A stretch of DNA of 64,000 nucleotides from assembly GCA_027487685.1 (NCBI GenBank), contig JAIYDC010000046.1, positions 1 to 64,000 of the forward strand, read 5' to 3'. Shown piece after piece: positions 57,223 to 59,356 of the stretch; position 1 is the first letter of the stretch; every line of letters begins with the position of its first letter. The notes beneath the pieces were generated by a model. It worked only from the letters and a program-made list of their open reading frames with translations. It did no database searches and was not told where the DNA came from. The position numbers were made by a program, and so were the translations under genes. This DNA is from Pseudomonadota bacterium. Its GTDB lineage: Bacteria; Bdellovibrionota; Bacteriovoracia; Bacteriovoracales; Bacteriovoracaceae.

Positions 57223-58980
57223 TTAGTGAGAGACGTGGGGAGCAAGGAGATCAAAGGAAATGCTCTCAGGAAGGCCCGGAGGTAGCCGCGGAGTCGGCGT
57301 CGTTGCAGGGATGGCCCCAGCCTCTACTCGGCGAGCGTGAATCATTCTCTGTTCGATGTAGGCCGTGACTAGGTTCCGCTGAGACTCCGGAAGCCGACGG
57401 TAATCTTCGGCCGCACGAGCGAGCGCCGGATTGGCAAGGTAACGATCAGCGAGAGGCTTTCCTGCATCGATGTCGTAGAAGAGATGCTTTATCTCTGCGT
57501 TTTGACTTACCGCCGGTCCTCGGATCTGAAACTCGGCTTGGACACCGCTTCGGTACCGAATGTTCATGTGAAAGGCTGTGTAACCGTCAGCAAAGCTATC
57601 GGTGGGAGCATTGCGGACAGCAACGGGTGGAGGGATTTCATGAGCAGGAGTTCCGGCCTGTCTTAGGTTCGAGAGATACTCAGTGTCTGCTCTCACGATT
57701 TGTTCGATCTGCGCATCGGTCAGGTATGGAGGAGCTGCTCCATTCCGAGGCCGATAGTTTAAGATCTCGGTCACTCGGTTGCCGTTTCTAATATCGATCA
57801 CAACCTGATCAACAAAATCCTGAACAAGCCGCGGCTCAATTACACCTCTCGCATTAGGCCGAAGGGTTAGACGAGCACCAATGCCGTCACCAATCGCCTC
57901 AAGTGAGCGATTCAATCGATTGATCCCCGGCTGACCGTTCGTAAAAGCGTTGAAGTCTTTCCGTAAGAGTTTAGTTAAGACAGAATTGTAGGTTTTCCCG
58001 CGGCCTGCGAAATCACCGAATCGCGCATAGGATAGACTTAGATTCCGTACCTCCCGTTCTTCAATGGTGCCGTAGGCGCGGGAGATCTCTCGGGCGTATT
58101 CTTTGATCCGCTCGATGTGCTGCGGTCCACGAGCTTCAAGCCAGGCGGCCCTCCTATCGGCCGGGAGATTCGTCAAAATTCCTTCGATAAGATTCGACGC
58201 CGGAGTCGAGTTCAAGCCCCGGCGAGGTAATGAGCCTTGGATCTCGGGGGTGACCGGAGGTATGGTTTCATCACCAACAACCACCGCGAGAGGTGGGGAT
58301 CCAGGAGTCTCCTCGGTGATGAAGATTGAGCGCCCTTCGCTTTCGGAGCTAAACTTGAAACTCTGGGATCGAACTACATCTTCCGAAACAAATTCCACAG
58401 GAACATCGTCGACTCGACCGGAGAGCCTCATGGCCGCTAGACGACGGGGATCAAGGGTCCAAATGCGGCCCTGGGTATCACGCCAAACTCGGATTGGCGG
58501 CAGAGAACGTAGGGTTAAGGTGCCCTGTCGAATCGCCTGAGCGTTTCCGAGGACAGTGTTTTCACCACTTCGATTCGCAGCATCGACCTGAGAGAAGCGG
58601 ATGTCACGAATGTTGAGCGTCGCAGGGCCCAGCTGCTGTCCGCGGTCAAAGATGGGCATGGCCGGCCCTTGCCTTTCAGCGCCGTGGAATCGAACGAGAT
58701 TCCGATTGAGTTCATTGACCTCATTTGGGGTCCAAGGAATCACACCCAGGTGGTTCAGTCCTTGGAGCCGAGTGTCCAGTATCCTAGAGGTTTGCCTAAA
58801 CTCATCCGAAAACTGACCAAACTGACCCGTCTGAAGACTGCGCAAGAGGGGGGTGAGACAGGAGCGTACCTGAACCGACGTAACCACGGCAAAGCTCGGG
58901 GCCAACGATACGAAGAAACCACTTACCAGTAGAGCTGCAAAGATGTGCTTCCGTAGAACTGTGCTTGAGTTTTTGACCAT
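57223..58980 (-). CDS. Exported ParB-like / RelA-SpoT-like synthetase protein (candidate effector)
   Basis: The 585-residue product has a signal peptide (about 1-31, FFVSLAPSFA), a ParB/Srx-like region (about 110-235, LPPIRVWRDTQGRIWTLDPRRLAAMRLSG...VPVEFV) and a RelA/SpoT-type alarmone-synthetase domain (about 290-510). Key synthetase residues are in place: R327 and K329 in GRGKTYNSVLTKL, D365 in IGDGIGARL, Y467 and H471 in DGYTAFHMN, and E483 in EFQIRG. There is no HD hydrolase, TGS or ACT domain. Export of such an enzyme is odd for a housekeeping alarmone synthetase and suggests a toxin aimed at another cell. No immunity gene is adjacent. Confidence 0.75.
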   Translation of the reverse strand: MVKNSSTVLRKHIFAALLVSGFFVSLAPSFAVVTSVQVRSCLTPLLRSLQTGQFGQFSDEFRQTSRILDTRLQGLNHLGVIPWTPNEVNELNRNLVRFHGAERQGPAMPIFDRGQQLGPATLNIRDIRFSQVDAANRSGENTVLGNAQAIRQGTLTLRSLPPIRVWRDTQGRIWTLDPRRLAAMRLSGRVDDVPVEFVSEDVVRSQSFKFSSESEGRSIFITEETPGSPPLAVVVGDETIPPVTPEIQGSLPRRGLNSTPASNLIEGILTNLPADRRAAWLEARGPQHIERIKEYAREISRAYGTIEEREVRNLSLSYARFGDFAGRGKTYNSVLTKLLRKDFNAFTNGQPGINRLNRSLEAIGDGIGARLTLRPNARGVIEPRLVQDFVDQVVIDIRNGNRVTEILNYRPRNGAAPPYLTDAQIEQIVRADTEYLSNLRQAGTPAHEIPPPVAVRNAPTDSFADGYTAFHMNIRYRSGVQAEFQIRGPAVSQNAEIKHLFYDIDAGKPLADRYLANPALARAAEDYRRLPESQRNLVTAYIEQRMIHARRVEAGAIPATTPTPRLPPGLPESISFDLLAPHVSH

Positions 58981-59356
58981 ATCTCTTGAAAACTATCGTC
59001 AATGACCCTTCATAAATTTAGAGAAAAACCATAGGCGACCCCCTAAGCCCAGAAACGTTGGGATCGTTGACAGGAGTAGTAGAAATTTCGGCCCCGACGG
59101 ATCAGGTCCGAGTTATCGTATGTGCTTAGTCTACAAACAGTTGGCCAATTTCTTCGGTAGCGGAGTGTTTTATCACAAGAAAGCGAAGCCATCGGGAGTC
59201 TTAAGCCCCATTTAAAAGGCATTTCTTGCCGGCACACGTCTTTCGCCCCAAATAAATTGCGATTCAAACCCTAGAGAGCTGATTAAATAAAGATTCTAGT
59301 ATAAAATGCTTGTATGATTTTTAGAGGGTTCCCATCATTCGTATCTAAAGGGTGGT
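58981..59356. other. 376-base gap between divergent genes, nothing clear
   Basis: The gap is AT-rich near 59270-59340, where TATAAA at about 59301 could be a -10 for the kinase gene, but no matching -35 is found. A 74-codon minus-strand frame inside it has no ribosome site and looks like chance. Confidence 0.35.

What the first reader, a model, noticed from the sequence alone, without database searches (positions are those of the whole stretch)
57223..58980. Exported fusion of a ParB-like region and an intact RelA/SpoT-type synthetase domain
The sequence shows a signal peptide followed by a ParB/Srx-like region and a domain with every key synthetase position of RSH proteins: R327/K329, D365, Y467/H471 and E483. 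Alarmone synthetases normally work in the cytoplasm. The known exported example type is Tas1, a type VI effector with this fold that makes (p)ppApp and drains ATP; toxSAS enzymes are intracellular relatives. In a probable predator, an exported synthetase could be delivered to prey, where prey ATP would be substrate. The ParB-like part may bind or hydrolyse nucleotides or direct processing. No immunity gene is adjacent, which fits a protein that never folds in its own cytoplasm. I know of no described system with this architecture.
Basis: partly seen in the sequence, partly recalled or inferred. Interest (0 to 1): 0.9.

Follow-up and report, generated by a model that had tools for sequence, protein, structure and literature searches.

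The report
Exported alarmone synthetase with ParB-like domain
A bacterium related to the predator Bdellovibrio encodes an apparently exported enzyme with an intact machinery for making bacterial stress-signal nucleotides; such exported enzymes were described in other bacteria in 2025, and this one is a variant with an added ParB-like part.

Summary
The 585-aa minus-strand ORF 57223-58980 has a signal-peptide-like start, a ParB/Srx-like region (residues about 122-221) and an intact RelA/SpoT synthetase (SYNTH) domain (288-574). The SYNTH model is confident (pLDDT 90.3). Its best match by VIA-align is SaEAS (8vx3, Z 13.0), the Streptomyces exported alarmone synthetase; Tas1 scores 9.2. R327, K329, D365, Y467, E483 and Q485 are unchanged in 42 of 42 distinct relatives aligned. 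The ParB assignment rests on motifs and a marginal profile match; its fold was not confirmed, and the G020 relative has lost the arginines.

Exported alarmone synthetases (EAS) are a published kind (PMC12691689, 2025): Sec signal, SYNTH domain, no immunity gene. So this is a new variant, not a new kind. Not found in that paper's text: Bdellovibrionota members (7 of 368 genomes), ParB-like+SYNTH and Ppx/GppA+SYNTH fusions, and the relatives in a Gastranaerophilales-containing phylum (98 of 292 genomes). H471 makes a guanosine acceptor at least as likely as ATP. Activity, acceptor and delivery into prey are inferred.

The parts
57223..58980 (-). CDS, 585 aa: signal peptide + ParB/Srx-like region + SYNTH domain
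   Evidence: purifying selection against the C34 copy
58888..58980 (-). Sec-type signal peptide, residues 1-31 (predicted)
   Evidence: charge, hydropathy, A-x-A-like site at 31 (heuristic)
58318..58617 (-). ParB/Srx-like (Tox-ParBL1-like) region, residues 122-221
   Evidence: alignment A8 of 9 sequences; its profile hits 9 of 368 phylum genomes; match to ParB_N marginal
58441..58452 (-). D177-P-R-R180, at the place of the [NT][RT][RT] / DGHHR motif
57259..58119 (-). RelA/SpoT-type synthetase (SYNTH) domain, residues 288-574
   Evidence: model pLDDT 90.3, pTM 0.83; Foldseek and VIA-align matches to SAS/EAS enzymes
57970..58002 (-). R327-x-K329-xxx-S333-xxx-K337, ATP-binding motif
   Evidence: R327, K329, K337 in 42 of 42 distinct relatives, S333 in 39 of 42; role by analogy with RSH enzymes
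57871..57888 (-). D365-G-I-G-A-R370, metal-binding aspartate motif
   Evidence: D and R in 42 of 42; role by analogy
57568..57585 (-). G466-Y467-T-A-F-H471, acceptor (syn3) motif
   Evidence: Y in 42 of 42; position 471 is Q 35, H 5, N 2 of 42
57520..57534 (-). E483-F-Q485-I-R487, catalytic E-x-Q motif
   Evidence: E and Q in 42 of 42, R in 40 of 42
57484..57498 (-). A-E496-I-K-H499, motif after E-x-Q shared with SAS enzymes
   Evidence: H in 40 of 42, E in 31 of 42; aligned with YwaC

Best explanation
The gene encodes an exported alarmone synthetase (EAS). It is made with a Sec signal peptide, so the SYNTH domain folds only after leaving the cytoplasm and the producer needs no immunity gene. 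Outside, in the envelope, a prey cell or lysed-prey material, the SYNTH domain transfers pyrophosphate from ATP to the 3'-OH of a purine nucleotide, most likely a guanine nucleotide with ATP as possible alternative, making (p)ppGpp and/or (p)ppApp and using up nucleotide. The ParB-like region is an accessory module of Tox-ParBL1 type, probably for binding or positioning. Shown here by sequence and model: SYNTH fold, intact catalytic residues, signal-like start, no conserved partner gene, modular recombination in relatives. Inferred: activity, acceptor, site of action, role of the ParB-like part.
For: SYNTH model pLDDT 90.3; best VIA-align match is the exported synthetase SaEAS 8vx3 (Z 13.0, rmsd 2.6, 181 aligned), then RelP and RelQ type enzymes, CapRel and Tas1. 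Catalytic residues unchanged in 42 of 42 distinct relatives. dN/dS low, lowest in SYNTH. Hydrophobic signal-like starts in the other Bdellovibrionota SYNTH proteins, which have three other architectures, while Rel and two Gastranaerophilales members scored 0.17-0.45 on the same scale (exceptions are told in the full report). Own Rel is present separately, in two copies. A relative (G038) is a 2404-aa protein with a signal-like start in which SYNTH follows a Ppx/GppA domain; GppA converts pppGpp to ppGpp (stated in PMC12691689). Published Sec-type EAS share signal peptide, isolated locus and no immunity gene; VpEAS is toxic only without its signal.
Against: No enzyme data. Pfam does not recognise the window SYNTH domain at its cut-off, and a genome search with PF04607 did not list it. 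Foldseek TM-scores are modest (TMq 0.29-0.47 in the first 33 rows). Position 471 is Q in most relatives, so acceptor preference cannot be read off. The periplasm is presumably ATP-poor, so substrate supply is a problem unless the enzyme meets a cytoplasm or lysate. Only 7 of 368 phylum genomes have the domain, so it is no general predation factor. No cleavage-site-like motif was found in the G038 signal-like start.
Confidence: 0.66

Rival explanations
1. Prey-directed effector: delivered into the cytoplasm of prey, where it turns ATP into (p)ppApp and drains ATP, like Tas1.
For: Fold match to Tas1 Z 9.2; Bdellovibrionales lineage (record titles of relatives); no immunity gene needed if exported at once.
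Against: No translocation domain found by Pfam; H471 resembles the guanosine-type syn3; 7 of 368 phylum genomes only; predation by this organism not tested.
Confidence: 0.17
2. The ParB-like region is the working part (nuclease or phosphotransferase, Tox-ParBL1 type) and SYNTH is a second, independent warhead.
For: Relatives carry the ParB-like domain without SYNTH behind a signal-like start (G015, G158, G333, G113, G115); Tox-ParBL1 is a described toxin domain (PMC3482391).
Against: Arginine motif lost in the G020 fusion; relation to ParB statistically marginal; stronger constraint on SYNTH.
Confidence: 0.1
3. A catalytically dead or binding-only envelope protein that kept the SYNTH fold.
For: Exported SYNTH in a presumably ATP-poor compartment; syn3 residue variable.
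Against: All eight donor-side, metal and E-x-Q residues named in the full report unchanged in 42 of 42 distinct relatives.
Confidence: 0.07

Closest known systems
SaEAS and the exported alarmone synthetases (PMC12691689, mBio 2025; structure 8vx3)
   Same: Sec signal peptide, SYNTH fold, E-x-Q and related catalytic residues, isolated gene without immunity gene; best VIA-align match
   Different: SaEAS is a single SYNTH domain from Streptomyces; here a ParB-like region precedes it. The paper's main text has no occurrence of Bdellovibrio, Bdellovibrionota, Gastranaerophil- or ParB
Tas1/Apk1 (6ox6) and Apk2 MuF toxins
   Same: SYNTH toxin domain acting outside the producer
   Different: T6SS or MuF carriers with immunity genes; Apk2 has GxN at syn3 against A-x-H471 here; lower structural score for Tas1
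RelA/SpoT-like domains of polymorphic toxins (T7SS, T3SS XopAD, MuF; PMC3482391, passages)
   Same: SYNTH domain as a predicted secreted toxin, proposed already in 2012
   Different: Other carriers; no Sec signal or ParB-like fusion in the passages seen
toxSAS of toxin-antitoxin modules (FaRel2, CapRel)
   Same: SYNTH fold
   Different: Cytoplasmic, with an antitoxin gene or domain; none found here
Tox-ParBL1 (PMC3482391, section 25 and table passages)
   Same: Ser/Thr before, and an RR pair at the place of DGHHR; toxin context
   Different: There a C-terminal toxin domain; here N-terminal, motif degraded in G020, fold unconfirmed
Phage polyvalent proteins with DdrB-like ParB and RelA/SpoT domains (PMC5512222, passages)
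   Same: ParB-superfamily and RelA/SpoT domains in one polypeptide context (Helicobacter prophages)
   Different: Phage multi-domain proteins of another ParB family; no viral relative of either domain found here

Membership tests
RelA/SpoT (RSH) SYNTH domain | SYNTH fold | tested here: met
   model pLDDT 90.3; the 29 best VIA-align rows are all SAS, EAS, CapRel, Tas1, FaRel2, SpoT or Rel/RelA chains
RelA/SpoT (RSH) SYNTH domain | donor, metal and E-x-Q residues | tested here: met
RelA/SpoT (RSH) SYNTH domain | recognition by the family HMM PF04607 | tested here: inconclusive
   window protein 15.1 bits against a cut-off of 27; 2 of 8 family proteins scanned pass
Exported alarmone synthetase (EAS) | Sec signal peptide or secretion domain | tested here: met
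   heuristic only, no SignalP
Exported alarmone synthetase (EAS) | no adjacent immunity gene (Sec-type EAS) | tested here: met
   convergent ATPase and divergent kinase as neighbours; the only small ORF in the gap has no match at C34 or G020
Exported alarmone synthetase (EAS) | (p)ppGpp or (p)ppApp synthesis; toxicity only without the signal | not testable with these tools
   needs enzyme and growth assays
Exported alarmone synthetase (EAS) | sequence relation to the Apk1-seeded jackhmmer set of PMC12691689 | not tested
   its sequence files were not open to me; only the structures 8vx3 and 6ox6 were compared
toxSAS toxin-antitoxin module | cognate antitoxin gene or domain | tested here: not met
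   no conserved partner gene; no PADLOC match
T6SS effector Tas1/Apk1 | PAAR/Rhs or other T6SS domain | tested here: not met
   no such Pfam match listed for the protein at E up to 10 (the filters drop most weak matches)
Tox-ParBL1 / ParB-Srx superfamily | ParB fold | tested here: inconclusive
   hhalign E 0.013, 2 of 200 shuffles as good; model of this part mostly under pLDDT 50
Tox-ParBL1 / ParB-Srx superfamily | [ST] and [NT][RT][RT] motifs | tested here: inconclusive
   S130 and P-R-R in the window, so Pro where the published motif has [NT]; the S/T position is S or T in 5 of 9 aligned rows and M in 4; RR lost in G020

The most novel reading that the evidence does not exclude
Bdellovibrionota and Gastranaerophilales carry a toolkit of exported or carrier-borne nucleotide enzymes (ParB-like+SYNTH, Ppx/GppA+SYNTH, bare SYNTH, and, beside a lone ParB-like domain, an exported NadD-like adenylyltransferase) with which a predator or epibiont takes over the nucleotide-signal state of another cell, forcing it into a stringent-like arrest while its nucleotides are harvested. 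No description of it turned up in the searches.
Probability: 0.2. Interest if true: 0.85.

Novelty: new variant of a known kind. Interest (0 to 1): 0.55.

Why it matters
It extends exported alarmone synthetases, published for Streptomyces, Vibrio and T7SS bacteria, to the Bdellovibrio lineage, where another cell's contents are the food source in known members and the open question of the EAS field (where do the substrates come from?) has a natural candidate answer. It also points to a SYNTH subfamily that Pfam mostly scores below its cut-off (2 of 8 proteins pass), frequent in a Gastranaerophilales-containing phylum, and to an exported-looking protein with both a synthetase and a Ppx/GppA domain, which makes a direct test of extracellular alarmone turnover possible.

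Tried and rejected
Novel-kind claim: rejected after the literature search found exported alarmone synthetases as a published class. Phage, plasmid or viral origin: no viral-contig relative by profiles of either domain; no plasmid match with the window SYNTH domain; one weak phage hit with the relative L015, not the window (E 0.05); PHROGs nothing for the window protein. ParB fold by structure: the full-length model left most of residues 40-231 of the mature chain (71-262 of the protein) under pLDDT 50, and both prediction jobs were then used. Solved relatives of the N-terminal region: none convincing (the Fur-type hit at E 0.15 and the 4csd lectin hit at E 0.13 I take as chance). PF08857 (ParBc_2), another ParB-like family frequent in the phylum (52 of 191 genomes, none in G000), does not match the window protein. 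C34 copy as a clean paralogue: not accepted, because it is colinear with the window in five aligned pieces (two of about 4 kb at 72% DNA identity, 1.2 kb at 75%, 0.6 kb at 72%, 0.14 kb at 90%) and the Rel region too is present twice (96% aa; 80% DNA), while PurA and MurJ have one copy each; the C34 piece has 44.9% GC against 51.7% in the window. Co-binned relative or segmental duplication cannot be told apart. Acceptor prediction from syn3: not relied on, since motif swaps failed to change specificity in Apk2.

Searches for prior reports, by listings unless said otherwise: 'exported alarmone synthetase' gave 1 paper; 'rela spot' with 'polymorphic toxin' gave 0, probably because papers print a slash; Bdellovibrio with ppGpp 39 papers, 20 listed; Bdellovibrio with ParB-like, signal peptide or secreted nuclease 201, 12 listed; Bdellovibrio with alarmone 17, 12 listed; Gastranaerophilales, RelA and toxin 88, 8 listed, the term 'rela' also matching 'related'; ParB-like, Srx, toxin domain and polymorphic toxin 222, 10 listed. 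None of the listed titles describes an exported synthetase in Bdellovibrio; most papers were not opened. In PMC12546842 (Bdellovibrio predation proteome) a passage search found no ppGpp, nucleotidyl- or effector, and ParB only as the partitioning protein.

Full report
WHAT IS THERE. The minus-strand ORF 57223-58980 codes for 585 residues from an ATG. Residues 1-31 look like a Sec signal peptide: charge +3, hydrophobic stretch at 13-23 (mean Kyte-Doolittle 2.46), A-x-A-like sites ending at 27 and 31; Rel of the same genome scores 0.17. This is a heuristic, not SignalP. A P-type ATPase gene converges on the gene with 8 bp between the two stops, and a PAS histidine-kinase gene diverges from it 376 bp away. 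The gap holds one small ORF on the same strand (59043-59267, 74 aa, TTG start) and another overlaps the gene's start (58802-59002); neither has a convincing match in the C34 or G020 loci, so I see no conserved partner that could be an immunity gene.

SYNTHETASE DOMAIN. Pfam gives only RelA_SpoT at E 0.028, below cut-off, and a genome search with that family lists only Rel, twice, in this genome; NCBIfam, PADLOC and PHROGs give nothing for the window protein at E up to 1. Relatives bridge the gap: L015 passes Pfam's cut-off with E 1.9e-9 and L016 with 9.3e-7; the other six SYNTH proteins scanned do not. A profile of five relatives finds B. subtilis YwaC among PDB sequences at E 1.1e-5, one of nine at 1.6e-8, with R-x-K, D, GY and E-x-Q in register. 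Against canonical Rel proteins hhalign aligns 43 columns around Y467 to H499 (probability 62%, E 7e-5); 0 of 200 column shuffles reach that score, and the cross-comparisons SYNTH to ParB_N and N-domain to Rel give E 0.5-0.6. The AlphaFold2 model of residues 288-574 has mean pLDDT 90.3 and pTM 0.83. Foldseek's 17 matches at E 0.001 or better are all small alarmone synthetases or GTP-pyrophosphokinase family proteins, with modest TM-scores; SaEAS is rank 24 at E 2.4e-3. VIA-align 2 ranks first 8vx3, the exported synthetase SaEAS of Streptomyces albidoflavus (Z 13.0, rmsd 2.6, 181 residues), then RelP/RelQ-type enzymes (11.8 to 9.8), CapRel (10.1), Tas1 (9.2) and SpoT/Rel (8.3 and below).

CONSERVATION. 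I gave a script 53 SYNTH loci; all had a domain match, 50 gave a usable row (L062, L069 and L071 were left out because their match spanned more than 700 residues), and 42 rows were distinct. R327, K329, K337, D365, R370, Y467, E483 and Q485 are the same in 42 of 42, N408 too; S333 in 39. The residue at 471 varies: Q 35, H 5, N 2. Among eight Bdellovibrionota proteins including the window it is H in four, Q in two and N in two. In RSH enzymes this syn3 site reads SxH and has been tied to guanosine; in the ATP-specific Apk2 it reads GxN, yet swapping motifs did not switch specificity (PMC12226406, outline and section 16). The window reads AxH. I lean to a guanosine acceptor without being able to exclude ATP. 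Between the window gene and a copy on contig C34 (73% aa identity) the dN/dS estimate is 0.08, and 0.03 in SYNTH; dS is saturated.

N-TERMINAL REGION. Residues 122-221 form a recurrent domain: its profile finds 9 of 368 phylum genomes, one of them (G179) only weakly in a 46-aa frame. Outside the window genome and G020 it mostly stands without SYNTH behind a signal-like start (G015; G158, with a second degenerate repeat; G333; G113, twice in one protein and once in another; G115), and in G247 it lies in a longer frame with a DUF7790 match. Its consensus has the landmarks of ParB/Srx domains, and hhalign aligns it to ParB_N in that register, but weakly: E 0.013, reached by 2 of 200 shuffles. Its serine/threonine and RR pair resemble Tox-ParBL1 (PMC3482391, section 25 and passages); the S/T position is kept in 5 of 9 rows. 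In the G020 protein, of the same architecture as the window, the motif has become DDALL, so a catalytic role is doubtful. The full-length model is mostly under pLDDT 50 here; its alignment held one full-length homologue only.

RELATIVES AND ARCHITECTURES. The SYNTH profile hits 7 of 368 phylum genomes: the window genome twice, G020 (same architecture; it lies among genes for proteins with signal-like starts, one with a DGHHR motif seen by eye that Pfam does not match to ParB), G280, G279 and G054 (signal-like start plus SYNTH), G135 (1243-aa open frame) and G038 (2404-aa protein with a Ppx/GppA domain at 1818-1982, Pfam E 2.2e-23, NCBIfam matches below their cut-offs, and SYNTH at the end). 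Signal-like starts: clear in the window, C34, G020, G280 and G279; G038 is hydrophobic (2.75) without an A-x-A-like site; G054 scores only 0.82 from the start codon used, with a hydrophobic stretch further in; in G135 a hydrophobic stretch follows the frame's beginning and the start codon is uncertain. The genome-contig scan (10 relatives among 71 pattern matches) added Candidatus Gastranaerophilales records in which SYNTH lies near the end of proteins of 1144-1737 aa, and one 320-aa protein; no signal-like start in the two tested, L016 and L018. In a sample of that phylum 98 of 292 genomes hit, with sizes of 1.5-2.5 Mb. In G015 the lone ParB-like gene is followed 2 bp later by one for a signal-like NadD-type adenylyltransferase (Pfam CTP_transf_like E 5.3e-10; weak kinase-like tail) and, overlapping by one base, one for a DUF2252 protein.

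HOW IT PROBABLY WORKS. Export before folding would keep the synthetase from acting on the producer, which fits the missing immunity gene. For VpEAS and V. cholerae RelV the published work shows toxicity without and none with the signal peptide, and SaEAS is secreted without harm to its producer (PMC12691689: abstract, sections 3, 5 and 9, the start of 6 and the first of two parts of 11 read). Outside, the enzyme would make (p)ppGpp or (p)ppApp wherever ATP and an acceptor meet it: in lysing prey, in an invaded prey compartment, or in a prey cytoplasm if it gets there. The last step has no support here beyond lineage. Shown: fold (model), residues, signal-like start, no conserved partner gene, modular family. 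Inferred: activity, acceptor, place of action, function of the ParB-like part.

KNOWN OR NEW. Exported alarmone synthetases are a published kind, and RelA/SpoT-like toxin domains were predicted in polymorphic toxins in 2012 (PMC3482391 passages). The EAS paper's main text contains neither Bdellovibrio, Bdellovibrionota, Gastranaerophil- nor ParB; its sequence files were not open to me, so some relatives may be among its 1,369 candidates. A ParB-superfamily domain in the same context as RelA/SpoT is reported for Helicobacter phage polyvalent proteins (PMC5512222, passages and section 22), with another ParB family. So this is a new variant of a known kind.

LIMITS. The source is a MAG (3.7% contamination). 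The C34 copy may come from a co-binned relative or a segmental duplication. Whether the organism preys on others was not tested.

Noticed in passing
L007:8367-15581 (-), G038: 2404-aa protein with a signal-like start and a Ppx/GppA domain followed by a SYNTH domain: a synthetase and an alarmone/polyphosphate phosphatase domain in one chain. Ppx/GppA catalytic residues were not checked in detail.
   Followed up: partly
L009:6421-9703 (-), G015: Operon-like run of three proteins with signal-like starts: lone ParB-like domain, NadD-like adenylyltransferase with weak kinase-like tail, DUF2252 protein.
   Followed up: partly
L018-L022 and L055-L084: SYNTH matches in open frames from 309 to 4366 aa in 98 of 292 genomes of a Gastranaerophilales-containing phylum. 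Of 14 pattern matches in L056-L084, 7 end 93-117 residues before the stop and 7 end 566-568 residues before it. L020 also has an HELGH metallopeptidase-like stretch, seen by eye.
   Followed up: partly
G000 contigs C34 and C61 against the window contig C80: Colinear second copies of window genes at about 72% DNA and of the Rel region at 80% DNA, while PurA and MurJ are single: co-binned relative or segmental duplication.
   Followed up: partly
L099:1465-2778 (+), L100:1188-2477 (-): A protein of about 430 aa with a weak partial RelA_SpoT match lies near a RecA-like gene (by eye) in two genus members; matches of this kind in frames of 321-458 aa occur in 23 of 23 other genus members searched, none listed in G000.
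   Followed up: no
L101:16-1065 (-), G001: A 349-aa SAS-like protein with a RelA_SpoT match of E 2.4e-18 besides Rel.
   Followed up: no
L104-L119: PF08857 (ParBc_2) proteins occur in 52 of 191 Bdellovibrionota genomes sampled, one match within a 2665-aa frame; 4 of 6 loci read have signal-like starts by eye.
   Followed up: no
L148:4525-6621 (+), G135: An open frame with ankyrin-like repeats (by eye) lies divergently beside the large SYNTH protein; an ankyrin protein is reported for self-protection in Bdellovibrio (PMC4686830, title and abstract start in the listing).
   Followed up: no
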